Under the pieces are notes generated by a model, which was not told the DNA's origin, did no database searches, and saw only the letters and a list, made by a program, of their open reading frames with translations. 34,954 bases of DNA, taken from Clostridia bacterium (GTDB lineage Bacteria; Bacillota; Clostridia; Oscillospirales; Acutalibacteraceae). Each line of letters begins with the position of its first letter. The first letter of the stretch is position 1. The DNA is taken from positions 1-34,954 of the forward strand of contig JAFQRF010000081.1 of NCBI GenBank assembly GCA_017410195.1, in the 5' to 3' direction. The translations under genes were made by a program, and so were the position numbers. Shown piece by piece: positions 887 through 33,340 of the stretch.

Positions 887-1007
887 AATGAATAATGAAG
901 AATGAAAAGTGAAGAATTAAGGGTCGCTTCGCTCCGGTTTTTTATAATCGGGTGCGGGTGAAACCCGCCCGAAATTATTCATTATTCATTTTTAATTTTT
1001 CATTCAA
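887..1007. repeat. Heptamer-array palindromic element, copy A1
   Basis: Fills the gap between hisS and aspS. The left arm (888-922) is five 7-bp units in exact phase, the first ATGAATA and the last ATTAAGG. The core holds GGTCGCTTCGCTCCG, a TATAATCGG and a GCGGGTgaaACCCGC hairpin. The right arm (about 971-1007) is the inverse: read on the minus strand it is again RTGAANA units in 7-bp phase, and it starts directly at the hisS stop codon. Copies A2 (10006) and A3 (32949) share arm order and core. No ORF or transposase is inside. It could be a MITE-like or REP-like sequence or act as an RNA hairpin between the two genes. Confidence 0.85.
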
Positions 1008-2351
1008 TTATATCTGTCCGAGAATTGCGGAAAGGTCGATATCGCCGAGGTCGAAGGATTCGCCGAGAGCGGCAGTTTCCTGACGGAGAAGGAATTCCAT
1101 AAAGTTATCGGCAATTTCGGCAAGCTCCATTTCGGTTGTTTCGCCGTTATCCATATTTTTGACCTTTGCCTTGCCCTGAGCGATTTCGTCATCGCCAAGA
1201 ACCATTGTATACTTCGCGCCGATTTTATCGGCGTATTTCATCTGCGCTTTGAGCGAACGGCCGACAACGTCTGTCTGTGCGCCAATGCCGCCTGCACGAA
1301 GGTCGGCAACGATTGCCGCCGCTTCATACGATGCGTTTTCGCCCATCGGCGCGATATAGAGGTCGCATCCCGAAGGCTTGGGAAGCTCGATTCCCTGGGC
1401 TTCAAGGAGCATAAGCAGTCTGCCCGTACCCATGCCGAAGCCAAGCGAGGGAACATGCTGACCGCCGAGTTCTTCAACAAGTCCGTCGTAGCGGCCGCCG
1501 CCGCAGACTGTTCCCTGAGCACCTATCTGAGTTGAAACGAACTCGAAAACTGTACGTGTATAATAGTCAAGTCCTCTTACAATACGGGGATTGACAACAT
1601 ATTCGATATTCATTTTGTCGAGATATTTTTTGACGCTCTCAAAGTGAGCCGAGCAATCGTCGCAGATGTAATCGAGAATTGCGGGGGCATCCTTTGCGAT
1701 TTCGGAGCAGACCGGACTCTTGCAGTCGAGAATTCTCATGGGATTCTTCTCGAGTCTGCCGAGGCAGGTGGGGCAAAGCTCGTCCTTCTTTGTTTCGAAG
1801 TACTCTTTGAGCGCATTGTGATAATTCTTTCGGCATTCGGGGCATCCGATTGAGTTGAGCTGAAGTTCAAGTCCCTCAACACCGAGGAATGCAAAAATTT
1901 CGTTGGCAAGTGAGATTACTTCGGCATCTGCGGCGGGTGCGCCTGCGCCGAGCATTTCAACGCCGAACTGCTGAAATTCTCTCCATCTTCCTGCCTGAGG
2001 CTTTTCGTAGCGATAACAGTTGATAATATAGCAGAACTTCTGGGGGAGAGCTTCGTTGAAAAGTCCGTGTTCGAGGAATGCTCTTACCGCACCGGCTGTA
2101 CCTTCGGGACGGAGAGTTATTGAACGTCCGCCCTTATCGTCGAAGGTATACATTTCCTTCTGAACAACGTCGGTTGTTTCACCGACACCTCTCTGAAAAA
2201 GCTCGGTATGTTCAAAAACGGGGGTTCTGATTTCGCGGAAACCAAATTTTCTTGCGATGTCAAGCACGGTCTGCTCAATAAACTGGTTTTTATATACCTC
2301 CTCGGGCAGTATGTCCTGAGTGCCCTTGATGGCTTTGGTTACAAGTGCCAT
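1008..2351 (-). CDS. hisS: Histidyl-tRNA synthetase
   Basis: Charges tRNA-His in the cytosol; class II synthetase working as a dimer. At 447 residues it is slightly longer than the usual 420-430. Motif 2 is seen in CYRYEKPQAGRWREFQQFG, and TLRPEGTA precedes it. The histidine-specific motifs RGLDYYTRTVFEF and GGGRYDGL are both intact, and the C-terminal anticodon-binding domain follows from about residue 325. The last 25 or so residues are an acidic, leucine-rich tail beyond the usual end. The ATG at 2351 has a GGATG-type ribosome binding site. It lies downstream of mgsA with a stem-loop in the 98-bp gap, and upstream of aspS. No T-box consensus was seen in front of it. Confidence 0.97.
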   Translation of the reverse strand: MALVTKAIKGTQDILPEEVYKNQFIEQTVLDIARKFGFREIRTPVFEHTELFQRGVGETTDVVQKEMYTFDDKGGRSITLRPEGTAGAVRAFLEHGLFNEALPQKFCYIINCYRYEKPQAGRWREFQQFGVEMLGAGAPAADAEVISLANEIFAFLGVEGLELQLNSIGCPECRKNYHNALKEYFETKKDELCPTCLGRLEKNPMRILDCKSPVCSEIAKDAPAILDYICDDCSAHFESVKKYLDKMNIEYVVNPRIVRGLDYYTRTVFEFVSTQIGAQGTVCGGGRYDGLVEELGGQHVPSLGFGMGTGRLLMLLEAQGIELPKPSGCDLYIAPMGENASYEAAAIVADLRAGGIGAQTDVVGRSLKAQMKYADKIGAKYTMVLGDDEIAQGKAKVKNMDNGETTEMELAEIADNFMEFLLRQETAALGESFDLGDIDLSAILGQI

Positions 2352-2380
2352 TTTTTATCATCCTTAACTATAAAATTACA

Positions 2381-2404
2381 GGGTCGTCCATCAAAGACGA
2401 CCCC
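2381..2404 (-). terminator. Stem-loop between mgsA and hisS (terminator or processing site)
   Basis: GGGTCGTC and GACGACCC form a perfect 8-bp stem with a 7-nt loop, followed on the minus strand by TGTAATTTT. The U-tract is interrupted, so partial termination or transcript processing between mgsA and hisS is as likely as full termination. Confidence 0.45.
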
Positions 2405-2449
2405 GGTAAAACTTGATTTTTGCCAAGCAGGAGCGTCTGCGGAAGACTT

Positions 2450-2857
2450 TTATATCTTCGAAGGATTGACTATTTCGCGCCAATCAAGATCGCCTCTGGC
2501 AAGTGAATGTATGAGTGCCTCAGCCGTTGCAATATTCGTTGCAACAGGGACATTGTGAACGTCGCAGAGTCTGAGAAGCGTTGCTTCGTTGGGCTCGTGG
2601 GGCTTTGCAGTCAGAGGATCTCTGAAAAGGAGCAGAAGGTCAATTTCATTGCAGGCGATTCTTGATGCAATCTGCTGATCACCGCCCTGGGTACCGCTCA
2701 GGAATCTTGTAATATCAAGTCCGGTTGCCTCTGCAACCATTTTTCCCGTTGTTCCCGTTGCATAAATATCGTGCCTGCTGAGAATGCCGCAATATGCAAT
2801 GCAGAACTGAATCATAAGTTCTTTTTTGGCATCGTGAGCAATTAAAGCAATATTCAT
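2450..2857 (-). CDS. mgsA: Methylglyoxal synthase
   Basis: Converts dihydroxyacetone phosphate to methylglyoxal and phosphate, a cytosolic bypass of lower glycolysis that relieves phosphosugar stress. The 135-residue length fits the family, which is usually 130-150. The N-terminal ALIAHDAKK, the phosphate-binding TGTTG, the [10 protein letters not shown] loop with the catalytic Asp region, and [13 protein letters not shown] are all present. The start at 2857 is set by an AGAAGGAGG site 7 nt upstream. A sigma-A promoter with a palindrome over its -35 box lies upstream (2913-2949). It is first in a minus-strand series with hisS and aspS. The link to the synthetases may be only positional. Confidence 0.95.
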
Positions 2858-2912
2858 CGTTACGCCTCCTTCTGTTCTTTTAAAAGTACTCTTTTTTAAC
2901 GATTATAGGAGT

Positions 2913-2941
2913 ATAATATCAAATCCTGACAAATATGACAA
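2913..2941 (-). promoter_or_regulatory. Sigma-A promoter of mgsA
   Basis: On the minus strand, TTGTCA (2941-2936) and TATTAT (2918-2913) are separated by 17 bp. A perfect 12-bp palindrome, ACAAGTACTTGT (2938-2949), overlaps the -35 box, as an operator would. A second, imperfect AAAAGTACTCTTTT site lies downstream near 2883. Confidence 0.6.
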
Positions 2942-2993
2942 GTACTTGTTTAAAAAATTTTTGGTTTTTTTGTAATATTTTTATCACAACGAA

Positions 2994-5495
2994 TTATTCT
3001 TCCGCGCCCTCGTCTGCGCCGCCCTCATCTTCGGGCATTGCATCACGTTCTTCGCCTTCTTCAGGCTGAACGGAAACGGCGGTTATCAGTCTTTCGCCCT
3101 CGGTTACCTTCATAACACGGACACCCTTTGAGGGTCTTGCGCAAAGACGGATAGCTTCCATAGCAATTCGGATAATAATACCGTCGGAAGAAATAAGCAT
3201 AAGGTCATCCTCGGGGTTGACAACCTCAATTGCCGCAACATCGCCGTACTTCTTGACGTGATAGTTGGTGAGACCCGAACCGCCTCTGTTCTGGAGTCGG
3301 TAATCGGTAATTTCGCTGAGTCTGCCGTAGCCGGTTTCGCTGACGGTGAGAACCTTTCTGCCCTCGGTAAGAATATCCATACCGACAACACAGTCACCCT
3401 CTTTAAGCTTGAGCGCACGCACACCTCTTGCGGTACGGCCGATAACTCTTGCATCGTCCTCACGGAAAGCGATTGCCATGCCCTTCTTGGTAGCGATAAT
3501 AAGATTTTCGCCGCCTTCGGTAAGCTTGACCCATACAAGCTCGTCATCGTCGTCAAGGTTGATAGCGATAACGCCGTTCTTGCGGACATTCTTATATGCA
3601 TCAAGCTCGGTACGCTTGATAATACCGTTTCGGGTGAGCATACAGAGATAATAGTTATCCTCGCCGAATTCGGGAACTCTTATCATTGCGGATACTCTTT
3701 CGCCCTCTTCAACGGGAAGAAGGTTGACAATATTCATACCCTTGCTCTGACGTGAGCCTTCGGGGATTTCATAGCCCTTAAGACGGTAGGTCTTACCCTT
3801 CGTAGTGAAGAACATAATATAGTCGTGGGTCGAGCAGGTGAACATTGTTTTAACAACGTCTTCATCTCTTCTTGTCAGACCCTTGACGCCTCTGCCGCCT
3901 CTGTTCTGCTGCTTATATTCATCCATCGGAATACGCTTGATGTAGCCCATGTCGGTAAGAGTATAAACGCAGGTTTCAACGGGGATAAGGTCTTCAATAT
4001 CAACCTCGCCCGAAACATTGACGATTTCGGTTCTTCTTTCGTCGGAGAACTTATCACGGATAGCCATTGCCTCTGTCTTGACGATGTCGAGAACTCTCGC
4101 TTCGTTTGCAAGGATGTCAAGATAGTCGGCAATCTTCTCTTTAAGCTCGTCAAGTTCGTTCTGAATCTTGAGAATTTCAAGACCTGCAAGACGACCAAGT
4201 TGCAAAGCGACAATTGCCGCTGCCTGAGGCTCGTCGAAATCAAATTTTTCCATAATGGCAACCTTGGCATCCGCCTGACCGCCCTTACAAGCTCTGATTG
4301 TTGCAATGATATCATCAACAATATCAATAGCTTTTGCAAGACCTTCAAGAATATGAGCTCTGTCCTGAGCTTTTTTGAGGTCAAATCTTGTTCTGCGGGT
4401 AATAACTTCCTGCTGGAACTTGATATAATGGTCAAGAACTTCCTTGAGGGTGAGCTGCTTGGGTTCGCCGTTGACAAGCGCAATCATAATTACGCCGAAG
4501 GTTGTCTGAAGCTGGGTGAATGAGAAAAGCTGATTGAGAACAACCTGGGGATTTGCGTCCCTCTTGAGGTCAATCGAGATAAGCATACCCTTCTTTGACG
4601 AATAGTCGTTAACATCGGAAATGCCTTCGATTCTCTTTTCTTTTACAAGGTCTGCAATGCTTTCGATAAGCCTTGCTTTATTGACCATATAAGGAATTTC
4701 AGTTACCTGGATTTCAAATCTGCCGTTTTTCTTTTCAACGATTTCCGCCTTTGCGCGCAGAGTAATCTTGCCTCTGCCCGTGCCGTAAGCCGCTCTGATA
4801 CCCGCTCTGCCCATGATGACGCCCCTTGTGGGGAAGTCGGGACCCTGGATATGCTCCATAAGCTCCTCAAGGCTGATATCGGGGTTATCAATCATAGCGC
4901 ACATTCCGTCGATAACCTCGCCGAGGTTGTGGGGAGGAATGTTGGTTGCCATACCGACGGCAATACCGACCGAACCGTTTACGAGAAGATTGGGGAATCT
5001 TGACGGAAGAACGGTAGGCTCTTTAAGACGGTCATCGTAGTTGGTTGTAAAATCAACGGTATCCTTGTCGATATCGGTAAGCATTCTGAGCGAAAGCTTG
5101 CTCATTCTTGACTCTGTGTATCGGTAAGCTGCAGGGGGGTCGCCGTCAACCGAACCGAAGTTACCGTGACCGTCAACGAGAATATATCTCATTGAGAATG
5201 TCTGTGCAAGACGTACCATCGCATCATAAACCGATGCGTCACCGTGGGGATGGTAACGTCCGAGAACCGAACCGACGGTATCGGCGCACTTTCTGTATGC
5301 CTTATCGGGGGTCAGTCCGTTTTCGTGCATTGTATAAAGAATTCTGCGGTGAACAGGCTTTAAGCCGTCTCTGACATCGGGAAGCGCACGGGAAGTGATA
5401 ACCGACATCGAGTAATCAAGGAAAGCCTGACGCACTTCTTTGTTAAGGTCAACATTTATAATTTTCTGGGTATCTCTTGCGTCGCCAAAACTCAT
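2994..5495 (-). CDS. gyrA: DNA gyrase subunit A
   Basis: Breakage-reunion subunit of the A2B2 type II topoisomerase that introduces negative supercoils. The frame opens at a TTG (5501), but an ATG two codons on (5495) gives 833 residues and is the likelier start; the AAGGAAAGGA site overlaps the gyrB stop. The catalytic tyrosine is Y126 ([10 protein letters not shown]). The quinolone-determining region reads [14 protein letters not shown], so the residue matching E. coli Ser83 is alanine (A87), while the Asp87 equivalent is kept (D91). The C-terminal beta-pinwheel has a GyrA box, [10 protein letters not shown], near residue 530, which argues for gyrase rather than ParC. The last 25 residues are strongly acidic. 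It is third in an operon, 18 bp after gyrB. Confidence 0.97.
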
Positions 5496-5513
5496 TTTCA
5501 ATCAGTCCTTTCC

Positions 5514-7535
<2,022 letters not shown>

Positions 7536-8647: not shown

Positions 8648-8912
8648 ATGAAAAATGAAGAATAATTGATTTTGAGTGCAGAGTTCAGAACGCAGAATGC
8701 AGAACGGAGGGTCTGCGACGCAAATTTTATTCAATCCTCCGTCACGGCTGAACGCCGTGCCACCTTCTTCTCCAAGGAGGCTAATTCTGCACCAAGCTTT
8801 CTGCTATAGGCTCCTTAGAAAAGGAGCTGTCCGTAGGACTGAGGATTGATTTCAGCTTTTGCGGAGCAATATATAATCGGAGCGAAGCGCCCCTTCGTTC
8901 TGCACTCCGCAC
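8648..8912. repeat. Heptamer-array element, copy B1 (interrupted by element C1)
   Basis: Fills most of the 523-bp gap before ddl. The left arm has ATGAAAA-type units (8648-8661), then RTGCAGA-type units in exact 7-bp phase (8676-8710), ending in GTCTGCG. The right arm (8891-8912), read on the minus strand, has GTGCGGA and GTGCAGA units followed by GGCGCTTCGCTCCG, the family core. A TATAATCGG lies at about 8872. The middle is occupied by a separate palindromic element (8732-8848). The presence of both unit types links the A and B classes. Confidence 0.75.
8732..8848. repeat. Palindromic element C1 nested inside B1
   Basis: A 117-bp element bounded by perfect 8-bp inverted ends, CAATCCTC (8732-8739) and GAGGATTG (8841-8848). 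Inside are compact hairpins: ACGGC/GCCGT in the left half and CTCCTT/AAGGAG in the right half. No coding potential was seen. The layout suggests a small non-autonomous repeat that entered B1, or a part of a composite element. Confidence 0.65.
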
Positions 8913-10005: not shown

Positions 10006-10127
10006 ATGAAGAGTGAATAATGAAAAATGAAAAATTAAGGGTCGCTTCGCTCCGAAAAAATATTAATATAATCGGGCGTGGGCAGCGCCCACCCGAAATT
10101 ATTCATTATTCATTTTTAATTCTTCAT
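10006..10127. repeat. Heptamer-array palindromic element, copy A2
   Basis: Begins 7 bp after the ddl stop and ends 16 bp before the next gene. The left arm (10006-10040) is five 7-bp units in exact phase, starting ATGAAGA and ending ATTAAGG. The core has GGTCGCTTCGCTCCG, TATAATCGG and a GGGCAGCGCCC hairpin. The right arm (about 10095-10127) is the inverted array. Unit order matches A1 almost unit for unit, while the interior differs, so arms and core hairpins are better kept than the sequence between. Confidence 0.85.
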
Positions 10128-12329: not shown

Positions 12330-12523
12330 ATGCAAAGTGCAAAATGCAGAGTGCAGAATGAAGTGTCGCTTCGCTCCGATTCTATATTGCTCCGCAAAAA
12401 CTGAAGAATTATTATATAAGAACCTTTCGCACTTTTTGTGCTCGTGAACCTTGTTATTTTATAATAATCGGTCATAGGCGGAGCCTATCCTTCGTTCTGC
12501 GTTCTGCGCTCTGAACTCTGCAC
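12330..12523. repeat. Heptamer-array element, copy B2
   Basis: Occupies the gap between argS and the shikimate-kinase-like gene. The left arm (12330-12364) holds ATGCAAA, GTGCAGA and related 7-bp units in exact phase, followed by GTCGCTTCGCTCCG. The right arm (about 12490-12523), on the minus strand, is five RTGCAGA-type units followed by a GGCTCCGCC hairpin core. The interior holds a CGCACttttTGTGC-like stem and a TATAATAATCGG. It is the best preserved B-class copy with both arms. Confidence 0.8.
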
Positions 12524-14145: not shown

Positions 14146-15990
14146 TTAAAGAATATCGTTAAGCGGAGCGAAGATATATTCGTTGAGAAGTGTGAAGAAG
14201 CCCTTTGCAATAAGATTTACCGTAATTGCAGGCATCTCGATGAAGCCGTTGGTGCCGTAAATTTCATAAAGCCAAAGGCTGAGCTTTTCAAAGAAATCCG
14301 AGGGTTCTTCCTCTTCTTCGGCAGTATAAACGCCTGCTTTGACAAGAGCCGCATTGAGTCTTGCTTCGATTTCTTCTTCCTGACCTGCATAGCAAACCGT
14401 TCCGTTAACGAAAGCTTCCGCTTCCGCAAGAGCAGCTTCGAACTCTGCAGCATCCGCTGCGGAAAGCGCTGATGTATCAGCTTCCTTGGCAGCGGGAATA
14501 AGAGTATTCCTGATATGTCTGGGATCTCTTGCGCCATTGAACTGAGGATAATCGGGTGATGAATAAACATCCTTGATATCATCAGTCGCAAGGAGCGTTG
14601 TTGCAAGAGAGATTATGATATCGTTTCTTGCAGTCTTTTCGTGATTCTGACCGTCAAAATAGAAGGTAGTATCCGGAAGAAGACCTGTTGAGGCATCAAC
14701 AACTCTGTCGGGCGAAATGTGGTTATGCTCGGGATTTGAGCAATTTGTATTCGCCTGAACATAGTCCTCGGGAAGAGCTTCGCCGACCTTTGCGCTCTTA
14801 ACACCCATTGATGTTGAATCAAGGTGAATAACGCCGTCTGCATTATCGCCGTTCCATGTGTTACCGATGCAGTAAAGAGGTACATCGTAATCAACGATGT
14901 TGAAAACCTGAACGCCCTTGTCGATAAGAGTCTGAATATTCTTATCGGAATTGAGCTGTGCATGATAGTACATCTCGGTCTGACGCTTGATTTCAGCCTT
15001 TGAGGGGTCTGAGAGAAGCTCCTTTGCAAGCTTGGGATAATATGCCGAAGGACTGAGCGCCCAAAGGCTTGTAATATTAACAGCAACGTCATCGACAAGA
15101 GTATCAACCGCAGCGTTAAGAGCCTTGAGAAGCACTTCATCAGGGATGATTCTTGCGATAACCTCAATCATTCTTGCTTCGTCCTCATCCATGAGAGTTT
15201 CAAGGAAGCCGTTGAAGAGGAAATCCTTATCAAGGAAGGTAAGATCCTTTGCAAGAAGGTCACCGACGATTGTTGAACCGTCAAGAGCGGGAACGATATA
15301 AACAACCTTGTTGAGGTCGTCCATAACGTCGGGATGATATTCAAGAAGTCCGTTTGCAATTGAACCGCCCATGCTGATGGGAACGATATTGACCTTCTCA
15401 TGACCCGTATCCTTCTTGACCATCTGAATGAAATCGTAAAGCTCGTTTACGGCATCAAGATGATTGCCGAAGGAATTATAGGTGAAGAAATAAAGATGGT
15501 CCTCGCCTGCCTGCTCGGCATATGCCTGAAGAGGAACGGCATCATAAATCTGCTCTTTTTCGTATTCGCTGCACTCTGCAACGGAATAAGGATACTTTTC
15601 AACCTCGATATTGCCCGTGTTTTTGCCGTTGTCATCACACATGTTAACGGCAAAGCTGTCAAGAATAACATCAGAAAGAGCTGCCGAAAGACCTGCATCA
15701 CTCTGCGTGAGAAGAGTGAGAAGAATGGGGAAAAGCGCTCTTTTGATAATGTATCCGATATCGAAGATTGCGGGGAAACAGCTCATTCTTTCGCCATCGT
15801 CATCAAGAAGATAGTCGCCGTTTTCATCGAGCGCCCATACATTTGACTGACCGATACCGGGAACAACGATTGCCGGACATATATCGCAGTTTCCGCCGCA
15901 TTCCGTTTTAACCGCAGCAGCCGAAGCACCTACGGTCAGAACGGAGAAAACCATGGTGAGAGCAAGAATAACAGAAATAATCTTTTTCAT
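14146..15990 (-). CDS. Secreted alpha/beta-hydrolase (lipase-like), paralogue 2
   Basis: An exported protein of 614 residues with a signal peptide (1 to about 25, ending GASAA). The mature start has a CGGNCDIC cysteine motif, then the first hydrolase strand and oxyanion region IVVPGIGQSN (41-50). The nucleophile elbow is VPISMGGS with S206; proline and isoleucine replace the usual G-x before Ser. A candidate catalytic histidine lies in NHISPDRVVDASTG, in the last third. Residues about 520-560 form a helical FIVAR-like hairpin, and the C-terminus is hydrophobic. It shares layout and many blocks with the gene 21 bp upstream, so the two are tandem duplicates in one operon. Substrate unknown; lipid or ester hydrolysis is an inference. 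Confidence 0.82.
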   Translation of the reverse strand: MKKIISVILALTMVFSVLTVGASAAAVKTECGGNCDICPAIVVPGIGQSNVWALDENGDYLLDDDGERMSCFPAIFDIGYIIKRALFPILLTLLTQSDAGLSAALSDVILDSFAVNMCDDNGKNTGNIEVEKYPYSVAECSEYEKEQIYDAVPLQAYAEQAGEDHLYFFTYNSFGNHLDAVNELYDFIQMVKKDTGHEKVNIVPISMGGSIANGLLEYHPDVMDDLNKVVYIVPALDGSTIVGDLLAKDLTFLDKDFLFNGFLETLMDEDEARMIEVIARIIPDEVLLKALNAAVDTLVDDVAVNITSLWALSPSAYYPKLAKELLSDPSKAEIKRQTEMYYHAQLNSDKNIQTLIDKGVQVFNIVDYDVPLYCIGNTWNGDNADGVIHLDSTSMGVKSAKVGEALPEDYVQANTNCSNPEHNHISPDRVVDASTGLLPDTTFYFDGQNHEKTARNDIIISLATTLLATDDIKDVYSSPDYPQFNGARDPRHIRNTLIPAAKEADTSALSAADAAEFEAALAEAEAFVNGTVCYAGQEEEIEARLNAALVKAGVYTAEEEEEPSDFFEKLSLWLYEIYGTNGFIEMPAITVNLIAKGFFTLLNEYIFAPLNDIL

Positions 15991-16011: not shown

Positions 16012-17865
16012 TTATTTAAAAAGCTTTGTAATGGGTGAGAAAACCCAGTCGATAAGGTTGCCGCCGCCAAGCCAATCAACAAGGAACTTGCTTGCGCCTT
16101 CCATTGTTTCATCAAGGAAAACATCGAACTTTGAGGGTTCCTCGTCATATGTATAAAGATCATACTTTGCAAGGATAGCGTTGAGTCTGTCCTCTGCAGC
16201 CTTAACCTTTTCTGCATCGGCAACAGTAGCATTGATAACCTCTTCGCCCTGCTTGATTGCAGCTTCAAGCTCAGCCTTATCCTCTGCGGGAAGAGTGATT
16301 TCGCCTGCTGCATCCTGCTCGAGAAGCTTCTTTGCATCGGGAATTCTCCAGCGGCGGATATATTTTGTTGTGCAGCTGTAGTTGAACTGAGGATATTTAT
16401 CAGGCTTATCGTTAACATCCTTAACATCGCCTACAAGGATAGCCTTGACAAGGTTGAGAACAACGTCATTGTTGCCCACTTCGTGATGCTGGTCAAGGAA
16501 AATCCATGTATTTTCGGGAAGAATCGATGTTGAAACGTCAACCTTATTGTCGGGAGAAATGTGGTTGTGGTCTTTGCAATATGTGTTCTTTTTGTAGTCG
16601 ATATCGTCAAGGGTCTTGCCTGCAGGTGCGCCTGTTGCGCCGAGAGTTGTTGAAGAAAGATTGATGATACCGTCTGTGTTATAGTCGTGAGCGGATGCAA
16701 CGATGCCGAAGAAGGTGTAATCCTGCTCGCCGAAGGAAAGGTTTGCGCCTGCAACGGAGTTAACCTTAACGCCGTCTGCAACAGCATCAAGAATGTTATC
16801 CTTGAGGTTAAGTCTTGCCTGCTGGAAACGGTCTGTCTTTTCCTTAAGCTTTGCCTTTTCGGGTGCATTGTTGAGATATTTCTCTGCAAGTGCATCATAT
16901 CTGTATGAAGGAACCATCGCCCAAATCTGGGGACAGTTAATCATCATTGAATCAAGAACGCCGCTGATTGCGCCTCTGAGAATAGCTTCGACACCTGCGC
17001 GGGGAATAATGTGAAGCACGCAGTTGATAAGATAACCGAGAGTTGCATCATCGCCGAGAATGGGAGGAATAAACTCGTGATAGAGGAATTCATCCTCGAG
17101 GTTCCACTCTCTTGCAAGCATATCGGCAACGATATCCGTACCGTCAAGGCAGGCAACTGCATTAACGATTTCGTCAACCTTTTCGTGGCCGTATTCGTCA
17201 AGATAAGCGGTGAGAATTGTACCGCCGAGAGAAACGGGAAGAAGAGTAACCTTATCGTGACCGGTCTGCTCCTTAACCATGTCGATATATTCGTCAAGTT
17301 CTTTAGCCGACTGCATAGGGTCGCCTACAAGGTTGAATGTGAACATATAGATATGGTCGCCGCCGATTTCCTTTTCGATTGCCTGAAGAGGAATCATGGT
17401 GTAAAGCCAATCCTTATCGTCTTCGGTCATTTCGGAAATGGGGTGATTCCATCTCTTGGTCTGAAGATTGTTGATGTGGTTACCGTCATTGTCGCACTTC
17501 TGAACCCAGAAAGCAGCGCTTGCAGCGTCGTAAGCAGCATCTTCAAGACCGATGGGAATCTGAAGAGTGAGGGTTGTGAGAAGGCTCAGAATGAGCTTGG
17601 GAAGTGTACCCCAGAGCTTGCTCAGCTCAAGGATAAGAAGGGTGCCGCCGACTTCGTTGCCGTCAGCATCAAGATAGGGTGTGTTATCTTCATTGTAAAG
17701 ATATGTGGGTGAATGGTTGATACCGGGGAGAATAACGACGGGCGATCTGCCGCAATTTCCGCCGCATTCGGTTTTTGTTGCTGCTGATGCACCTACCGCA
17801 CCGACAGATACAAGCATTGCAGCGCACAGAATAAGAGAAATCGCTCTTTTGATTCTGTTTTTCAT
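16012..17865 (-). CDS. Secreted alpha/beta-hydrolase (lipase-like), paralogue 1
   Basis: A 617-residue exported protein, first in the pair. The signal peptide (1 to about 29) ends VGASAA. The mature start TKTECGGNCGRSPVVILPGIN closely matches the second copy. The nucleophile elbow is LLPVSLGGT with S212; HNHISPDNKVDVSTSILP carries the candidate histidine. The C-terminal region again has a helical segment (LPAEDKAELEAAIKQGEEV) and ends with a hydrophobic stretch. An AAGGAG site lies 13 nt before the ATG, rather far. The copies differ most in the cap region (about 220-400), which would suit different substrates. GPI-deacylase, LCAT or PHB-depolymerase-like activity cannot be told apart by eye. 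Confidence 0.82.
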   Translation of the reverse strand: MKNRIKRAISLILCAAMLVSVGAVGASAATKTECGGNCGRSPVVILPGINHSPTYLYNEDNTPYLDADGNEVGGTLLILELSKLWGTLPKLILSLLTTLTLQIPIGLEDAAYDAASAAFWVQKCDNDGNHINNLQTKRWNHPISEMTEDDKDWLYTMIPLQAIEKEIGGDHIYMFTFNLVGDPMQSAKELDEYIDMVKEQTGHDKVTLLPVSLGGTILTAYLDEYGHEKVDEIVNAVACLDGTDIVADMLAREWNLEDEFLYHEFIPPILGDDATLGYLINCVLHIIPRAGVEAILRGAISGVLDSMMINCPQIWAMVPSYRYDALAEKYLNNAPEKAKLKEKTDRFQQARLNLKDNILDAVADGVKVNSVAGANLSFGEQDYTFFGIVASAHDYNTDGIINLSSTTLGATGAPAGKTLDDIDYKKNTYCKDHNHISPDNKVDVSTSILPENTWIFLDQHHEVGNNDVVLNLVKAILVGDVKDVNDKPDKYPQFNYSCTTKYIRRWRIPDAKKLLEQDAAGEITLPAEDKAELEAAIKQGEEVINATVADAEKVKAAEDRLNAILAKYDLYTYDEEPSKFDVFLDETMEGASKFLVDWLGGGNLIDWVFSPITKLFK

Positions 17866-26604: not shown

Positions 26605-27858
26605 TTATTTCTTATAGCTTGCGATTCCGCCCTTTTTATCATAAAGCTCTGCACATTCCTTGCAGATTTTAAGCGAAAGCTCAATGCATTCGGGGCTGAT
26701 GTTATCCCATGTATCCTCACGGGTGTGGTAATACTTTTTGGGATTATGGTTAACGCCGCAGAAGCCTGCAGCTTCAAGACCCTCCTGAGTAAACGCATCG
26801 GAATCGATTGCACCGGGATAAAGCTGCGCTCTGGGCATATCTATGCCGCACTTAAGACCTGCTTCGCGGATAAGGTCGCCGACTGCCTTGCTGGAGTGAA
26901 CCGAGCCTGTGCAGCCGATGTTGTAAATCTGGAGCTGGTCAACTTCACGCATTGTATCCATGGCGATGAAAATGGTTTCAGTTTCAAGGAATTCCTTCTT
27001 ATGCTTTCTTGCAAAGGCTCTTGCGCCTCTGAGACCCGCTTCCTCTGAGCCTGAAAGAAGGCAGCCTACCTCTGTGTTTTCAAATCTTTCGTCGGCATCA
27101 AACATATCCTTGATAACTGCCATTGCGATGTAGTTTGCGGAAAGATTGTCATTTGCGCCGTCAACAATAACCTTCCAGTTAATGAAGAAGAGAATAAGAA
27201 TGAAGAAGGGAATAAGGCAGAGCATAACAATGCCGATAACCTTCCATGCGCCCTCGATTTCGGGAGCAACAAAGCCGTTCATTATTGTTTTAACCATCCA
27301 GATGATGCTGAAAATCGCAACAACAAACATGCCGATGATTGCGCCTGCCATGACGGGAGCAAGAGCCTTAATGCCGCCGTGGTATGTATAAGTCCACTCC
27401 TGAGCAGCATCGGTATGACCGCCGAAGATGATGCGGCGCTTGACTTCACCTTTCGGTTTTCTTACAGCATAAACGTTTCTTGAAACTGCCTTGGGGAAAA
27501 GCTTGTCAACAAAGGGTCTGTAGAAAAGGAATTCGATTATAAACATAAGAAGATCGGCTATCATAAGCACACTTGCAACGATTGAAAGCCAGGGTGCATA
27601 CGGAGTAAGCCAGAAAAAGATTGCGGATAGAATTCCGAAAATACCCGCAACGGGGATAAAGCCCATGAAAGCTTTGGGATGAAGGTCGAAATCCTCCATA
27701 ATAACTTCATCCGAATACTTTTCAAGCTCTTTTTTGAGATAAGCCTGAGCATCTCTTTCGGACTGAGTGCCGGGCGCTCTGTCCTTGAACTTTTCGCAGA
27801 TGGTGCGAATTCCGTCCGTCATGTACTTAAGCGTTTCTTTTGAAACAGTCTTTGCCAT
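26605..27858 (-). CDS. Membrane-embedded M28-family zinc peptidase
   Basis: A 417-residue aminopeptidase-like protein. All five zinc ligands of the M28 family are visible: H148 (GGHTDA), D237 (GANDNLSA), E273 beside the catalytic E272 (GSEEAGLRGA), D301 (AMDTMRE) and H378 (YYHTRED). Hydrophobic segments occur at about 67-84, 89-112, 168-190 and 206-227; the last two are inserted between the first and second zinc ligands, which is unusual, as most M28 enzymes are soluble or have membrane segments only at the ends. There is no signal peptide. The side on which the active site lies cannot be set by eye. An AGAGGT site precedes the ATG. Its neighbours are a four-helix membrane protein and a lipoprotein. 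Confidence 0.88.
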   Translation of the reverse strand: MAKTVSKETLKYMTDGIRTICEKFKDRAPGTQSERDAQAYLKKELEKYSDEVIMEDFDLHPKAFMGFIPVAGIFGILSAIFFWLTPYAPWLSIVASVLMIADLLMFIIEFLFYRPFVDKLFPKAVSRNVYAVRKPKGEVKRRIIFGGHTDAAQEWTYTYHGGIKALAPVMAGAIIGMFVVAIFSIIWMVKTIMNGFVAPEIEGAWKVIGIVMLCLIPFFILILFFINWKVIVDGANDNLSANYIAMAVIKDMFDADERFENTEVGCLLSGSEEAGLRGARAFARKHKKEFLETETIFIAMDTMREVDQLQIYNIGCTGSVHSSKAVGDLIREAGLKCGIDMPRAQLYPGAIDSDAFTQEGLEAAGFCGVNHNPKKYYHTREDTWDNISPECIELSLKICKECAELYDKKGGIASYKK

Positions 27859-27915
27859 AATATAACCTCTTTCTTTAAAATTTTTCCCTGTTTGTTTTTT
27901 CTTCGTGTTTATTTA

Positions 27916-28542
27916 TCAGTGCTTTTTTCCGGTAAGCTTTTCTTCTTTGGGTTCACCGATTTCGATAATATAGAAAGAAGCGGTCCAGACAAGAAGGAAG
28001 ATAAACGTAAAAATAAGTCCGTTCTGGAAGCCGGCAAGCGAAATCGCTTCAATCTTGATAAGACTGCCGAGAATTGAGGTCAGAATGCCCGAAGAAAGAA
28101 CATCCTTGACACCGATAACGCCCGTTGTGATTACCGATGCGGCAGATTTGAAGCAGGTAACCATAACAATTGTTGCGATAAGACCTGCAACGCTTGCGGC
28201 AATAACGGGAATTCTTTTATCGCTGCAGATTGACCATATAATAATAAAAATCGCAGCAATAATAACAACAACAAGTGCGACACCCGAGGCAATAAGCCTG
28301 CCGTTGATGAGATCAAAGGCTTCGGGCCATGAAAAGCTTGATGATTTGACTCCGTCATAAATGAATGAGAAATAATGCTCACCGCGGATGATGTCAATGA
28401 TATCCTTGACCGAAAGAGTTTCGTGAAGACCCGCTTCAACAACGGTTGTACCGATTCTGAAATAGATAAAGTCCATTAACAGAATAACGGGGAAAACAAC
28501 AGCCGCAAGCAGGGCATTGACTATTCTGTATAAATATCTCAT
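27916..28542 (-). CDS. Four-helix membrane protein of unknown function
   Basis: A 208-residue protein with hydrophobic spans near 8-28, 85-108, 112-135 and 176-196. A charged region between the first two spans carries an aromatic SFIYDGVKSSSFSWPEAFDLI. The segment SVITTGVIGVKDVLSSGIL suggests a further re-entrant or amphipathic stretch. The C-terminus is basic (EEKLTGKKH). An AAAGGAT site precedes the ATG, 27 bp after glnS. It lies between glnS and the M28 peptidase on the same strand, so it is probably in that operon. No family was recognised. Confidence 0.8.
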   Translation of the reverse strand: MRYLYRIVNALLAAVVFPVILLMDFIYFRIGTTVVEAGLHETLSVKDIIDIIRGEHYFSFIYDGVKSSSFSWPEAFDLINGRLIASGVALVVVIIAAIFIIIWSICSDKRIPVIAASVAGLIATIVMVTCFKSAASVITTGVIGVKDVLSSGILTSILGSLIKIEAISLAGFQNGLIFTFIFLLVWTASFYIIEIGEPKEEKLTGKKH

Positions 28543-28569
28543 TTTAAAAATCCTTTCTTAATGCCGTTC

Positions 28570-30228
28570 TTATTTCCACGATGACTTAAGGTCAACCGTT
28601 CGGTTGAAAATGAGCTTTTCATCGGTTGAGTTTTTGTCAACGCAGAAATATCCCTGCCTCATAAACTGGAAGGTATCGCCGCATTTTGCATTGCCGATTC
28701 CGCCTTCAACAAGGCAGCCGCTAAGAATTTCAAGGGAATTGGGGTTAAGGTAATTAAGATAATTTTCTTTGCCGTCAGCCATGGGGTTTTCTTCGCTGAA
28801 AAGACGGTCATAAAGACGGATTTCGCAGGGGACGCAGTCCGAAGCGCTGACCCAATGAATTGTTCCCTTAACCTTTCTTCCGTCAGGAGCTTCGCCGCCC
28901 TTGGTTTCGGGGTCATAGGTGCAGTGAACGCAGGTGATTTCGCCGTTTTCATCGGTTTCCCAGCTGTTGCAGGTTACGAAATATGCGCTCTTGAGACGAA
29001 CCTCATTGCCGGGGAAAAGTCTGAAATACTTCTTGGGCGGCTCAACCATAAAATCGTCACGCTCAACAAAGATTTCTCTTGAGAAATGAACGGTTCTTGT
29101 TCCGAGTTCAGGCTTGAGAGGATTGATTTCAACCTCGATTGCCTCGCTCTGTCCTTCGGGATAGTTGTCAATAACAACCTTGAGGGGACGGAGAACAGCC
29201 ATTGCTCTGGGAGCGTTTTCGTTGAGATTATCTCTTACGCAGGCTTCAAGCAGACCGTAGTCAACAACGCTGTCTGCCTTTGAAACACCGATACGGTTTA
29301 TAAAGTCACGGATTGCCGCTGCGGGATAGCCTCTTCTTCTCATGCCGCTGAGAGTAATCATTCGGGGGTCGTCCCAGCCGTCAACGGTTCCGTTCTGAAC
29401 CATTGCAAGGTTGTATCTCTTGCTGGTTACGCAGTAGTTGAGATTAAGTCGTGCAAACTCAATCTGTCTGGGAGGCTCTTCAAAGCCGATTTCCTTGATG
29501 AACCAGTCATAAAGGGGTCTGTGATTTTCAAATTCAAGCGAGCAGAGTGAATAAGTTACGCCTTCCCTTGCATCCGAAAGAGGATGCGCGAAGTCATACA
29601 TGGGGTATACGCACCACTTGTCGCCCGTCTGATGATGGTGAACATGAGCGATTCTGTAGATAACGGGGTCACGCATGTTGATGTTGGGCGATGCCATATC
29701 AATCTTTGCACGGAGGGTTCTTTCACCGTCGGCAAACTCGCCTGCAGTCATTCTTGCAAAAAGGTCAAGATTTTCCTCGACCGAACGGTCACGGTAGGGG
29801 CTGTTCCTGCCGGGTTCGGTAAGAGTGCCTCTGTATTCTCTGATTTCATCGGCAGAAAGGTCGCAGACATAAGCCTTGCCGTTCTTGATAAGCTTGATTG
29901 TGCATTCATAAATAAAATCAAAATAGCTCGATGCGTAAAGCACCTTGTTCCACTTGAAGCCGAGCCATTCGATATCTGCCTTTATAGCATCAACATACTC
30001 AACATCCTCCTTTGAGGGGTTGGTATCGTCAAGGCGGAGATTGCATTCGCCGCCGTATTTTTCGGCTGTTGTGAAATCAATGCAGATAGCCTTTGCGTGG
30101 CCGATGTGAAGATATCCGTTCGGCTCGGGCGGAAAACGTGTCTGGATTCTGGTGTTGACTCCGTTGGCAAGATCTTCGTCAATGAAGTCATATATAAAAT
30201 TTGACGGTGTGGTATTAAGTTCGTCCAT
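28570..30228 (-). CDS. glnS: Glutaminyl-tRNA synthetase
   Basis: Charges tRNA-Gln directly with glutamine in the cytosol; class I enzyme of 552 residues, the normal bacterial size. The HIGH motif lies in [17 protein letters not shown] near 32-48, and the KMSKS-like loop reads VTSKR. The GlnRS-type beta-barrel anticodon domain fills the last 200 residues ([15 protein letters not shown]). Most Firmicutes lack this enzyme and make Gln-tRNA by the GatCAB transamidation route, so transfer in the past is plausible. It follows gltX with a miniature repeat (A4) in the 68-bp gap. An AAAGGA site precedes the ATG. Confidence 0.96.
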
Positions 30229-30253
30229 AGTGGGTACTTCCTTTCAAATTTAA

Positions 30254-30297
30254 ATGAAGAATGAATAATGAAAAGTTAAAAATCAGAAATTATTCAT
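30254..30297. repeat. Heptamer-array element, miniature copy A4
   Basis: Arms only, no GC core: four 7-bp units on the left (ATGAAGA first, GTTAAAA last, 30254-30281) and one inverted unit at 30291-30297 that overlaps the gltX stop codon. It lies between gltX and glnS. It could be a deletion derivative of an A-class copy. Confidence 0.65.
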
Positions 30298-31958
30298 CAC
30301 TTAAGGTTTTCAAGTGTCTTTGTAAGTCTTGATCTGATTTCATCCTCGCCGAGAAGATTCATTATCGAATAAAGGTCGGGCGTATTCTTTCTTGAAGTCA
30401 GAGCGATACGGATAACCGTTGAAACGTCGCCGACATGACCCTTGAAGGCTTCGGGATTCTTCTTGTATTCCTTGACATTGGGGGTGAAACCGAGAGGCTC
30501 GCACATATCCTTGATTCTTGCGAACCATTGGTCTTTGTCGTCAGCAAGAGAGAATTCGCCGAGATACTTTTCGATTATCGCCGCCGCATCTTCGTTTGAG
30601 ATGTTTTCGGGCATTGTGTAATCAGGAGTATAAAGCTCGTTATAAAGATATGAGAAATAATCCTTGACCTCGTTCCATTTTGCAATGTCTTTTCTGGGCT
30701 TGGGATTTTCTCTGTCGATATTGACGGCAGCGGTTGAAAATTCGGGGTCTGCCGTGAAAATATCATAAAATTCGGGGTCATAGACCCTTGCCCATTCGGC
30801 GATGTTATCGTAAACCTGCTGTGCGGTCATGACCGAGATAACGTTTTTGCTTACGTCGTTGAGCTTGACGAGGTCAAACAGACATCCGCTTGAACTCATC
30901 TTTTTAAGATTGAAGGGGAACTTCGAAATATCCTCTTTCGGATTTGCTCTGCGCCAATCCTCAAAGTTCGAGTTGAGAAGAGTGAGCAGATATTCAAGCA
31001 CGCTTTCCTTGGGGAAGCCTTTTTCAACAAAGTAGCTGACAGCTGCTTCGGGGTCCTTTCTCTTTGAAAGCTTGCGCTTATCGCCTGTTTCTTCGTCTAT
31101 CTTAAGCACCTGCGGAGTGTGCGCAAACTTGGGAAGCTTAAAGCCGCAGGCTCTGAAAAGCTCGATGTGCTTGGGTACGGAAGAAATCCACTCTTCGCCG
31201 CGGATAACGTGGGTTGTTCTCATAAAGTGGTCATCGCAGGCGTGTGCGAAATGGTAGGTGGGAATTCCGTCGGATTTGAGAAGAACCTCGTCGATTATGT
31301 TTTCGGGCATTTCAATCTTGCCTCGGATAACGTCGTCGAACATTATCTTTTTATCGTCGCTGCCGCCTGAGCGGAGTCGAAGTACCCAAGGCTTACCCTC
31401 TGCAAGATTCTTTTCGATATCTTCAAGGCTGAGGTCACGGCATTTTGCCCATTTTCCGAAGTAGCCCCAGATAAGAGCATCGCCCTGTTCCTGCTCCTTG
31501 CGAAGCTCGGCAAGCTCGTCCGCCGTGCAGAAGCAAGGATATGCAAGACCCTTTTCAACAAGGCTCTTTGCAACAGTCTGATAAATTTCTGCACGCTGGC
31601 TCTGTGTATAGGGACCGTATGCGCCCTTTTCGGTGCCGAAGCCGGTTACACCTTCGGTAAATTCAACGCCGAAATAATCAAAGCCGTTGATGATAGCTGA
31701 AACGCCGTCATCGATTTCACGCTTTTTATCGGTATCCTCAATTCTGAGGAATGAAACTCCGTTTGTTGCCTGAGCGGTAAGCACATCAACAAGTGCGCCG
31801 AAAAGTCCGCCGATGTGGAGATATCCCGTCGGCGACGGAGCAAATCTCGTTACTCTTGCGCCCTCGGCAAGTCCTCTTTCGGGGTAAAGCTCCTCATAAT
31901 AATCGGGAGTTTTGTCGATATGGGGAAAGAGAAGCTCTGCCAGTTTTTTATTATCCAA
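30297..31958 (-). CDS. gltX: Glutamyl-tRNA synthetase
   Basis: Charges tRNA-Glu; class I synthetase. The HIGH motif is in FAPSPTGYLHIGGLFGA and the KMSKS loop reads KLSKRKD. At about 553 residues it is longer than the usual 470-490, with the extra length in the C-terminal half. The frame opens at a GTG (31967) that touches the AGAGG site and has no spacing; a TTG at 31958 lies 8 nt from that site and gives MDNKKLAELLF, so it is the likelier start. Having both GluRS and GlnRS side by side suggests that this GluRS need not mischarge tRNA-Gln. A candidate promoter lies at 31995-32022. It heads a six-gene minus-strand series. Confidence 0.95.
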   Translation of the reverse strand: MDNKKLAELLFPHIDKTPDYYEELYPERGLAEGARVTRFAPSPTGYLHIGGLFGALVDVLTAQATNGVSFLRIEDTDKKREIDDGVSAIINGFDYFGVEFTEGVTGFGTEKGAYGPYTQSQRAEIYQTVAKSLVEKGLAYPCFCTADELAELRKEQEQGDALIWGYFGKWAKCRDLSLEDIEKNLAEGKPWVLRLRSGGSDDKKIMFDDVIRGKIEMPENIIDEVLLKSDGIPTYHFAHACDDHFMRTTHVIRGEEWISSVPKHIELFRACGFKLPKFAHTPQVLKIDEETGDKRKLSKRKDPEAAVSYFVEKGFPKESVLEYLLTLLNSNFEDWRRANPKEDISKFPFNLKKMSSSGCLFDLVKLNDVSKNVISVMTAQQVYDNIAEWARVYDPEFYDIFTADPEFSTAAVNIDRENPKPRKDIAKWNEVKDYFSYLYNELYTPDYTMPENISNEDAAAIIEKYLGEFSLADDKDQWFARIKDMCEPLGFTPNVKEYKKNPEAFKGHVGDVSTVIRIALTSRKNTPDLYSIMNLLGEDEIRSRLTKTLENLK

Positions 31959-31994
31959 AACATACACCTCTGTAAAAATATTTATACTCTATTA

Positions 31995-32022
31995 TTATTA
32001 CAGAAAACTCCGCAAGTATCAA
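31995..32022 (-). promoter_or_regulatory. Candidate promoter of the gltX-glnS series
   Basis: On the minus strand, TTGATA (32022-32017), 16 bp, TAATAA (32000-31995), about 37 bp before the proposed TTG start. The -10 is one of several AT-rich options. Confidence 0.5.
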
Positions 32023-32066
32023 GATATATTTTTAATTTTTTTCATTTATATTGGGGTTTTTTTCGG

Positions 32067-32090
32067 ATTTATTCGCCAAACGGAATAAAT
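32067..32090. promoter_or_regulatory. Inverted repeat between gltX and the M23 gene
   Basis: ATTTATTC (32067-32074) and GAATAAAT (32083-32090), perfect 8-bp arms with an 8-bp spacer, in the divergent gap. It could be an operator or a weak hairpin. No clear sigma-F or sigma-A promoter for the M23 gene was found in this gap. Confidence 0.35.
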
Positions 32091-32149
32091 GACACTTGCA
32101 ATGGCAAAAATATGGGTGAAATTAAACGGAAAACAAAAATTTTATTTTT

Positions 32150-32224
32150 GTAGGGCGGGATGCCCACATCCCGCCGTCTGAGTTTCATCTGAAATTGCGG
32201 CGGCTTGAGGGCAAGCCGCCCTAC
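32150..32224. repeat. Palindromic GC-rich element C2
   Basis: A 75-bp element with perfect 9-bp inverted ends, GTAGGGCGG and CCGCCCTAC. Each half forms its own hairpin: GGCGGGATG/CATCCCGCC on the left and GGCGGCTTG/CAAGCCGCC on the right, each with a loop of only 2-4 nt. It is far more GC-rich than its flanks and ends 37 bp before the M23 start codon, so it lies in or next to that leader. It has the look of a small mobile palindrome. Confidence 0.75.
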
Positions 32225-32261
32225 ACGAATTTTATGTTTTCGTTTGAAAAGAGGTTATACT

Positions 32262-32948
32262 ATGAAAAAGAAAATCAAGAAATACCCCAACATCTATCTT
32301 GCACTTTTTGTATGTCTGCTTGCGGTCGGAGTCGGCTCGGTTGTGGGGCTGACAAACCGAAGCTCAACCGATGAAACAACCGATTTCAGCCGAATCACCG
32401 TCACATGGAGCGTTGAAAACGAGCAGCCGCTGACGGATGAGGCGAACATCGGCATCAGCGGCATTGCGGACGAACGTATTTACACCGTACCCGAAACGAC
32501 AGAGAAGATTGAAGAAAACAAGCCGTATTCAGGCAATTTTGCCATGCCCATGGGTACGGATATCATCAAGGATTTCAGCAACGGCGAAATGGTGCTTTCA
32601 AAAACAATGGGCGACTGGCGTATACACAACGGAGTTGATTTTGCAGGCAGCGCAGGCAACGAGGTTGTTGCGGTTGCAGACGGCACGGTCACAACCGTTT
32701 ACGATGACAGCTTCTGGGGTACGGTTGTTGAAATCGACCACGGCAACGGCATGACGGCACGCTACTGCGGACTGAAAAGCGGAAGCTGCCTTCCCGAGGG
32801 CAGTGAGGTGAAAAAATACGATAAAATCGGCTCGCTCGGTCATATCCCCGTCGAAATCAGCGACGAGGACCACCTTCACCTCGAAATCCTCATTGACGGC
32901 GAAAATGTTGACCCGCTCAAAGCTCTGAACAAAGTCGGAGAGAATTAA
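32262..32948 (+). CDS. SpoIIQ-like membrane-anchored M23 peptidase
   Basis: A 228-residue protein; the frame opens at 32205, but the ATG at 32262 with an AAGAGGT site is the start. One N-terminal membrane span (11-30) is followed by a linker and an M23/LytM domain from about 88. The zinc ligands are complete: H122 and D126 in HNGVDF, then H204 and H206 in DHLHLE. This layout matches forespore SpoIIQ, which forms the engulfment channel with SpoIIIAH; clostridial SpoIIQ keeps the zinc site while that of B. subtilis is degenerate. General cell-wall M23 peptidases share the fold, and no spore gene is adjacent. It lies downstream of repeat C2 and upstream of repeat A3. Confidence 0.8.
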   Translation: MKKKIKKYPNIYLALFVCLLAVGVGSVVGLTNRSSTDETTDFSRITVTWSVENEQPLTDEANIGISGIADERIYTVPETTEKIEENKPYSGNFAMPMGTDIIKDFSNGEMVLSKTMGDWRIHNGVDFAGSAGNEVVAVADGTVTTVYDDSFWGTVVEIDHGNGMTARYCGLKSGSCLPEGSEVKKYDKIGSLGHIPVEISDEDHLHLEILIDGENVDPLKALNKVGEN

Positions 32949-33065
32949 ATGAAGAATTAAAAATGAATAATGAATAACTGCGGAAGGGCTTCGCCCTTGC
33001 CCGTTATAATAAGCGTCGCAGACCCTTAATTCTTCATTCTTCATTATTCATTCTTCACTATTCAT
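32949..33065. repeat. Heptamer-array palindromic element, copy A3 (reverse orientation)
   Basis: Starts on the base after the M23 stop codon. The left arm (32949-32976) is four units in exact 7-bp phase whose order equals that of the right arm of A1/A2 read on the minus strand, so this copy is inverted. The right arm (33025-33065), on the minus strand, is six units ending ATTAAGG, then GGTCTGCG. The core has GGGCTTCGCCC and a TATAAT. It is the first of three stacked elements in the 460-bp gap before the rpsO promoter. Confidence 0.85.
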
Positions 33066-33086
33066 TCCGAATTAATCTATGATTAT

Positions 33087-33152
33087 GGCGGCCGCCATTT
33101 GTCACCCGGCTCCCCATGGGCACGAATGTGCCACCGTTTAACGGCAGCCGCC
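33087..33152. repeat. GC-rich palindromic element between A3 and B3
   Basis: Bounded by GGCGGC and GCCGCC, with an inner GGCAC-GAAT-GTGCC hairpin (33119-33132) and a CCCATGGG. It is distinct from the heptamer elements but resembles C1 in its short hairpins. No ORF with a ribosome binding site was seen. Confidence 0.5.
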
Positions 33153-33229
33153 TTGCTTTTGAGAGATGTTTTTTGAAATGAATTGTGCTTAGCGCACACG
33201 AAGAATGATTTGTTGATTCGTAACATTAC

Positions 33230-33340
33230 GGACAGGCTCCGCCTATGACCGATTTATAATTGTTTTCAGTTTTTCAAAACAATATAAAAATCGGAGCATA
33301 GCGACCGTTCACTTTGCACTCTGCATTCTGCACTCTGCAC
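33230..33340. repeat. Heptamer-array element, copy B3 (one arm kept)
   Basis: The right arm (33306-33340), on the minus strand, is five 7-bp units (GTGCAGA type) followed by GGTCGCTATGCTCCG. The other end keeps the GGCTCCGCCTATGACCG core seen in B2 but has lost its array. The interior holds GTTTTcagtttttcAAAAC, a stem in the middle. It lies 70 bp upstream of the rpsO promoter. Confidence 0.75.

What the first reader, a model, noticed from the sequence alone, without database searches (positions are those of the whole stretch)
887..33340. Family of intergenic elements built from phased 7-bp units in inverted arms
At least seven copies or partial copies (887-1007, 8648-8912, 10006-10127, 12330-12523, 30254-30297, 32949-33065, 33230-33340) share one plan. 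Each arm is an array of 1-6 heptamers in unbroken 7-bp phase. The A class uses RTGAANA units (ATTAAGG next to one core end), the B class RTGCARA. The arms are inverted around a core with GGTCGCTTCGCTCCG or GGCTCCGCCTATGACCG and often TATAAT. Copy 8648 carries both unit types, so the classes are related. Unit order is kept between copies, so they are oriented. All lie between genes. As RNA each would be a long hairpin. Candidate roles: REP/MITE-like mobile DNA, mRNA 3'-end protection, or protein-binding arrays with a 7-bp period.
Basis: seen in the sequence. Interest (0 to 1): 0.72.

Follow-up and report, generated by a model that had tools for sequence, protein, structure and literature searches.

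The report
Mobile-like hairpins with seven-base mismatched stems
Short repeats of about 115 bases lie between genes in this Clostridia-like genome and its relatives; complete copies have two facing arms of four seven-letter words that would fold into a stem broken by a mismatch in nearly every word, and they are likely spread by an enzyme that has not been found.

Summary
In detail: all seven places hold phased heptamers, and a scan of nine contigs found 68 such arrays against 0 in a random control. These are not open-ended tandem repeats but a fixed ~110-120-bp element: two facing arms of four heptamers plus an end unit, each followed by a small hairpin, around a TATAAT-like spacer. A covariance model finds 19 loci in this genome and matches in 18 of 45 same-genus genomes. 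Related species lack copies at several orthologous gaps. No target duplication was found in 44 copies, and no mover was identified. Arms pair except at position 6 of each heptamer, unpaired in 26-31 of 34-35 copies. Perfect helices average about 6 bp, shorter than under unit shuffling; five class B copies do not show this. Position 4 is the same in all four units of 46 of 55 arms, 7.9 expected. Best reading: a REPIN/MITE-like family, apparently undescribed, with an unusual arm design, moved in trans by an unidentified factor. Effects on the host are untested.

The parts
888..1003 (+). complete class A element between hisS and aspS: L arm 888-922, R arm 969-1003
   Evidence: covariance-model match E 3.8e-20
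923..936 (+). cap GTCGCTTCGCTCCG of that element; same cap at 10041-10054 and 12365-12378, one mismatch at 8878-8891
8648..8661 (+). two class A heptamers, likely remnant of an older element at this site
   Evidence: other heptamer element at the same site in L161
8676..8912 (-). class B element with another palindromic repeat (about 8731-8849) in its core
10006..10127 (+). complete class A element between ddl and the next gene
   Evidence: covariance-model match E 2.8e-20
12330..12523 (+). class B element with both arms and both caps after argS
30254..30297 (.). remnant: one arm of four units and the inner end of the other arm, core lost
32949..33065 (-). complete class A element, R arm on the left; the right arm has five heptamers
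   Evidence: covariance-model match to 32949-33058, E 1.3e-17
33230..33340 (-). class B element with one arm (33313-33340) and both caps; left arm lost

Best explanation
These are copies of a small non-coding, imperfectly palindromic repeat of about 110-120 bp, likely mobile in REPIN or MITE fashion and likely moved in trans by an enzyme that has not been identified. Shown: two facing arms of mostly four heptamers plus an end unit, a small hairpin behind each arm, a TATAAT-like spacer, dispersal between genes, and presence in one species but not another at the same gap. Predicted: one strand, as DNA or RNA, folds into a stem of about six pairs and one mismatch per heptamer. Inferred: the heptamer is the recognition unit of the factor that handles the element, which would explain the fixed arm length and why position 4 agrees in all units of an arm. 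Inferred: the regular mismatches keep the stem from being a perfect palindrome, so enzymes that cut long hairpins (SbcCD on DNA, RNase III on RNA; from general knowledge) would tolerate it. Copies seem to survive mainly between a stop codon and the next ribosome-binding site, where they break nothing.
For: 68 arrays against 0 in control. Fixed arm length in a search anchored on a cap, not on heptamers: 30 loci. 19 loci here and 18 of 45 genus genomes. Relative L132 lacks elements at two window sites with both flanks aligned; five G022 sites are empty here with both flanks aligned. Nested and tandem half-elements in G022 and G063. Stem: position 6 pairs in 9% of cells, positions 2, 4, 5, 7 in 97-100%; two-sided changes at position 1 and in both caps; longest perfect helix 6.17 and 6.45 bp against 9.42 and 7.91 under unit shuffling, 0 of 500 as low. 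Position 4 uniform in 46 of 55 own arms, 7.9 expected.
Against: No mover found; no target duplication in 44 copies, so insertion itself is inferred from presence/absence. No movement has been observed, and the compared species differ by 12-20% in DNA, so no junction is defined to the base. Class B (5 copies) does not show the short-helix effect. The mismatch rule is absent in single copies of families f46, f25, f71. Shuffle control (a) does not respect relatedness, 23 of its 35 rows are from G022, and one of its five measures (further pair types) is not above shuffles (467/500). Copies are clustered on 8 of 88 contigs, unexplained.
Confidence: 0.55

Rival explanations
1. REPIN/RAYT system: the elements are REP-like doublets moved as single-stranded hairpins by a REP-associated tyrosine transposase of the same genome.
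For: Inverted halves, solo and tandem halves, hairpins and no target duplication fit. In the 37 genomes common to, 11 of 11 element-rich ones (10 or more three-unit hits) and 11 of 26 others have a PF01797 match (hand count).
Against: No heptamer arms seen within about 220 bp of 18 RAYT-like genes; several carry GTAG-type hairpins instead. In 21 Y1 loci no heptamer tract was detected nearer than about 1 kb. Element-rich G063 has no PF01797 match and the only one in element-rich G022 has a stop inside. The consensus has no GTAG or CGTC.
Confidence: 0.17
2. MITE of a DDE transposon (for example IS630-like with TA target) whose autonomous partner is absent or rare and whose duplications have decayed.
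For: Size, inverted ends, intergenic AT-rich sites. Nested copies in G022 can be read as having a TA duplicated (my reading).
Against: No duplication above shuffled pairing in 44 copies, including 22 from G022, which has near-identical copies. No transposase seen by eye in 12 further loci.
Confidence: 0.13
3. Conserved RNA or DNA element with a host function (operon-internal mRNA stability or processing), kept by selection and shuffled by recombination rather than transposed.
For: 21 of 24 own copies lie in co-directional gaps (all gaps 200 of 279); 18 of 25 co-directional copies of a second set lie within 15 bp of the upstream stop; strong folding; one orthologous site (d) is filled in both species.
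Against: Patchy presence (27 of 45 genus genomes without a match), empty orthologous gaps, orientation 14 sense to 11 antisense, no Rfam family.
Confidence: 0.09
4. Heptamer microsatellite: replication slippage made the arrays and the palindrome is incidental.
For: Heptamer repeats are over-represented in many bacteria (PMC4692102, passages); longer arrays occur in the distant genome G243.
Against: Arm length is fixed and each slot has its own letters; exactly one arm has T at position 3 of unit 2 in 47 of 54 candidates; caps and outer boundaries are shared; controls give 0.
Confidence: 0.06

Closest known systems
REPINs / BIMEs (REP doublets forming hairpins; PMC3116915 and PMC3733652, passages read)
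   Same: Dispersed intergenic pairs of inverted halves that form a long hairpin; halves also occur alone and in tandem
   Different: Arms are four phased heptamers with regular mismatches; no GTAG or CGTC in the consensus; no adjoining RAYT gene seen
ERIC and other miniature palindromic elements treated as MITEs (PMC10969869, passages read)
   Same: About 100-200 bp, imperfect palindromes, between genes, patchy copy number
   Different: No target duplication found; no parent IS found; seven-base arm units; sequence relationship to ERIC not tested
Intergenic heptamer repeats: TAACTGA in Beggiatoaceae (PMC4679880, abstract and one section read), GGGAATC in Xanthomonas (PMC4692102, passages read), cyanobacterial STRR (seen only in search listings and recalled)
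   Same: Seven-base units in phase, mostly intergenic, often near gene ends
   Different: Those are tandem repeats of varying number, described without paired inverted arms, fixed length or caps in what I read

Membership tests
MITE | Short, non-coding, terminal inverted repeats | tested here: met
   about 110-122 bp class A copies with facing arms; no gene inside complete copies
MITE | Target-site duplication | tested here: not met
   44 paired copies, 2-9 bases, several offsets: only one copy shows a 7-base match, at an offset
MITE | Ends shared with an autonomous transposon | tested here: inconclusive
   none seen in the loci fetched; whole genomes were not searched for it
REPIN/RAYT | Inverted doublet forming a hairpin | tested here: met
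REPIN/RAYT | GTAG or CGTC tag | tested here: not met
   absent from the consensus of 35 copies
REPIN/RAYT | Associated RAYT gene flanked by the repeat | tested here: not met
   0 of 18 RAYT-like genes with arms within about 220 bp, by eye; none nearer than about 1 kb in 21 Y1 loci
ERIC | Sequence relationship to the enterobacterial consensus | not tested
   only architecture was compared, from the review and recall
Heptamer tandem repeat (SSR/STRR) | Variable number of units | tested here: not met
   lag-7 identity confined to about 33 bases before the cap in 30 loci; mostly four units per arm
Known RNA family | Match to an Rfam model | tested here: not met
   no match in the window at gathering score or at E 0.5

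The most novel reading that the evidence does not exclude
A new class of bacterial hairpin element whose stem is a row of heptamer recognition units, each six pairs plus one built-in mismatch, read by an undiscovered protein; changing one position in all eight units at once switches the element to another dialect, so element and reader change specificity together.
Probability: 0.25. Interest if true: 0.75.

Novelty: new variant of a known kind. Interest (0 to 1): 0.56.

Why it matters
Seven-base intergenic repeats have been noted in several bacterial groups, and the papers I read give no settled explanation. Here the seven-base phase coincides with a stem of six pairs and one mismatch, which offers a testable reason for the number seven. 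If a protein reads the units, the dialects are a natural series for finding it. Some genomes of the genus carry tens of copies, so the family also matters for annotation, assembly and operon expression in these mostly uncultured bacteria.

Tried and rejected
Rejected: slippage microsatellite (fixed length, slot-specific units); canonical MITE with target duplication; RAYT as mover; intrinsic terminator (T-rich before and A-rich after the element, the reverse of a terminator). No sign of a plasmid or phage home: one G022 copy has no match in 72,556 plasmid records and one exact cap pattern has 0 hits in viral contigs.

Led nowhere: Rfam. A paper search for six heptamer strings gave 0 papers, and searches for heptamer, MITE, REP, ERIC and Clostridia terms listed none that I recognised as describing this family; I saw listings only, and most subscription papers are not in that library. 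A look for an autonomous copy in twelve loci of G022, G063 and G024 showed only ordinary-looking ORFs, judged by eye from their first 60 residues.

Results against my reading: class B helix test not significant; position-6 rule absent in f46, f25 and f71 (seven copies in all, arms typed); the within-group shuffle for position 6 is weak for each group alone (50, 22 and 46 of 500 as low); position 1 of unit 3 is also mostly unpaired (23 of 35). Rows: 60 raw candidates, 54 after removing identical sequences (some off-phase readings remain), 41 kept after dropping 7 without a single-T orientation and 6 off-phase; one copy (L236) is still counted twice among the 41 and among the 51 rows; 35 were aligned; three with an unrecognisable first unit were left out. 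In one search three of 24 copies overlap mechanical ORF calls by 52-172 bp. One search scored 150 of 1254 candidates and 80 per genome. Only G022 loci with an ortholog on the nine element-bearing contigs were compared.
Full report
WHAT IS THERE. The window is contig C79 of a 2.36-Mb, 88-contig genome. A position-weight scan of nine contigs found 68 arrays and none in one second-order Markov version of each contig. The contigs were chosen because they had hits, so 68 is not a genome density.

THE ELEMENT. Reading the copies shows one plan. The L arm is four heptamers plus RTTAAGG; the R arm is four heptamers plus RTTTCGG, and its second unit has T at position 3. In 47 of 54 candidates exactly one arm has that T. 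Behind each arm is a small hairpin cap, and between the caps lies a spacer that is usually TATAAT-like. Complete class A copies mostly measure about 110-122 bp; some own copies are longer because other repeats sit in the core. Caps are shared between classes (GTCGCTTCGCTCCG, the TAGGC..GCCTA hairpin), so parts are shuffled. To avoid choosing by heptamers I searched the genus for one cap alone: 13 of 45 genomes have it at up to 2 mismatches. In 30 loci drawn from those genomes the upstream sequence repeats with lag 7 only over about the last 33 bases before the cap. By eye all but one (L283) have the arm.

DISTRIBUTION. A covariance model of 35 copies finds 19 distinct loci here at E <= 1e-3, on 8 of 88 contigs (150 of 1254 candidates scored), and matches in 18 of 45 same-genus genomes at E <= 1e-5; match numbers run from 1 to 70 and count both strands of many copies. 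Across the class, 70 of 391 genomes have at least one exact three-unit match of RTGMANA. Some of these are other things, for example single-word runs in G365, which also has matches in the control. In distant families arms can be longer (G243) and caps differ.

GAIN AND LOSS. In L132 (argS 91% identical; record named Clostridia bacterium RGIG6473, sheep rectum) the hisS-aspS gap and the gap after ddl have no element, with both flanks aligned, and the gap before ddl shows no arms by eye. In L161 the gap after ddl holds a different repeat, and the gap before ddl holds a heptamer element of another dialect. Of eight G022 element sites with an orthologous stretch on the nine contigs, five (a, b, c, e, f) lack the element here with both flanks aligned (e and f hold other repeats; c is a half-element in G022), one (a3) has only one flank aligned, one (a2) shows a remnant, and one (d) has an element in both species with other dialect and caps. 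At site b the G022 element lies between the stop codon and the ribosome-binding site of adjoining genes. The flanks are too diverged to define any junction to the base.

INSERTION. In 44 paired copies no duplicated flank of 2-9 bases rises above shuffled pairing, apart from one copy with a 7-base match at an offset. With copies oriented, the base outside the L arm is A and that outside the R arm is T in 51 of 51 rows (50 copies, one counted twice); farther out the flanks are T-rich on the L side and A-rich on the R side. Own copies lie in co-directional gaps in 21 of 24 cases (all gaps 200 of 279). In a second set of 40, 35 have both neighbours called: 25 co-directional, 7 convergent, 3 divergent; none of the 40 is inside an ORF; 18 of the 25 lie within 15 bp of the upstream stop; orientation is 14 sense to 11 antisense. 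Short operon gaps may explain this without any preference.

THE STEM. Six strands of four copies fold better than the mean of their dinucleotide shuffles (z -3.1 to -8.7; for one strand 3 of 200 shuffles did as well). In the alignment of 35 copies (23 from G022, 6 from this genome, 6 from others) positions 2, 4, 5 and 7 of the heptamers form Watson-Crick pairs in 97-100% of cells, position 1 in 73%, position 3 in 69%, position 6 in 9%. By column, position 6 is unpaired in 31/34, 30/35, 31/35 and 26/35, position 3 of unit 2 in 35/35, position 1 of unit 3 in 23/35, and two positions of the end unit in 33/35 and 24/35. Two-sided changes occur at position 1 and in both caps: 79 cells against 38.6 in shuffles, which do not respect relatedness; the number of further pair types is not above shuffles. 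The longest perfect helix in the four-unit stem averages 6.17 bp in 6 own copies and 6.45 in 31 copies of relatives, against 9.42 and 7.91 when the units of one arm are reshuffled within the copy; 0 of 500 shuffles were as low in either group. In 5 class B copies the values are 6.80 and 7.39, not distinguishable. Two copies of family f14 show a mismatch at position 6 in all 7 unit pairs, one of f41 at positions 3-4 in three units and at 4 in the last, and four copies of f46, f25 and f71 show no such rule.

DIALECTS. With a filter that does not use position 4, 46 of 55 own arms have the same letter at position 4 of all four units (31 A, 15 C), 7.9 expected if units were independent; in G063 16 of 17 against 5.9; G011, G022 and G024 are nearly all A and say little. 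The class B R arm seen three times in G063 (GTGCAAA GTTCAAA GTGCAGA GTGCAAA GTTTCGG) equals the commonest R arm of G022 except for C in place of A at position 4 of every unit. Pairing explains why the two arms agree, not why four units of one arm do. That is the ground for inferring a reader of heptamers; gene conversion between units is an alternative that I cannot exclude.

WHO MOVES IT. PF01797 (Y1 transposase) occurs in 23 of 41 genus genomes; six RAYT-like proteins match the NCBIfam REP-transposase model below its cut-off. Over the 37 genomes common to, 11 of 11 element-rich and 11 of 26 other genomes have a match (hand count). Against a role: no heptamer arms seen within about 220 bp of 18 RAYT-like genes, none detected nearer than about 1 kb in 21 Y1 loci, GTAG-type hairpins beside several of them, no match in element-rich G063, and a stop inside the only match of element-rich G022. 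No other candidate was found.

WHAT I CONCLUDE. A real, dispersed family of small imperfect palindromes that behaves like REPINs or MITEs but fails a defining feature of each. Shown: architecture, dispersal, presence/absence, pairing with regular mismatches in class A. Inferred: movement in trans, the heptamer as recognition unit, and tolerance by hairpin-cutting enzymes as the reason for the mismatches. Not tested: any effect on the host.

Noticed in passing
window 8731-8849: A different palindromic repeat (CAATCCTCCG...GAGGATTGA) sits in the core of the class B element; similar sequence lies in the cores at G000:C13:17630, C51:53912 and C70:43160.
   Followed up: partly
L161:4375-4508, L257, L262, L267, L271: GTAG-tagged hairpins next to RAYT-like genes and in operon gaps form a second, more classical REP system in the same genus.
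   Followed up: partly
G000, 8 of 88 contigs: Model matches are clustered: 19 loci on 8 contigs; G022 copies cluster on its contig C31. Cause unknown.
   Followed up: no
L245, L246, L247 (G022); L379, L380 (G063): Half-elements repeat at about 62-bp pitch around or inside other copies, in G063 with class B halves next to class A halves.
   Followed up: partly
L230 (G011:C29:62236): G011 also has an element upstream of aspS, but with L and R arms the other way round from the window copy at 888-1003.
   Followed up: no
L336, L337 (G243); G000:C13:7400-7562, C70:6260-6667; L216: Further seven-base dialects: RTGGACA-like words beside RTGAATA words in G243, and RTGCGTA-like words in this genome and G011.
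   Followed up: no
window 14146-15990 and 16012-17865: Two adjacent ORFs of 614 and 617 aa on the minus strand look like tandem paralogues (66-nt stretch at 71%; similar starts).
   Followed up: no
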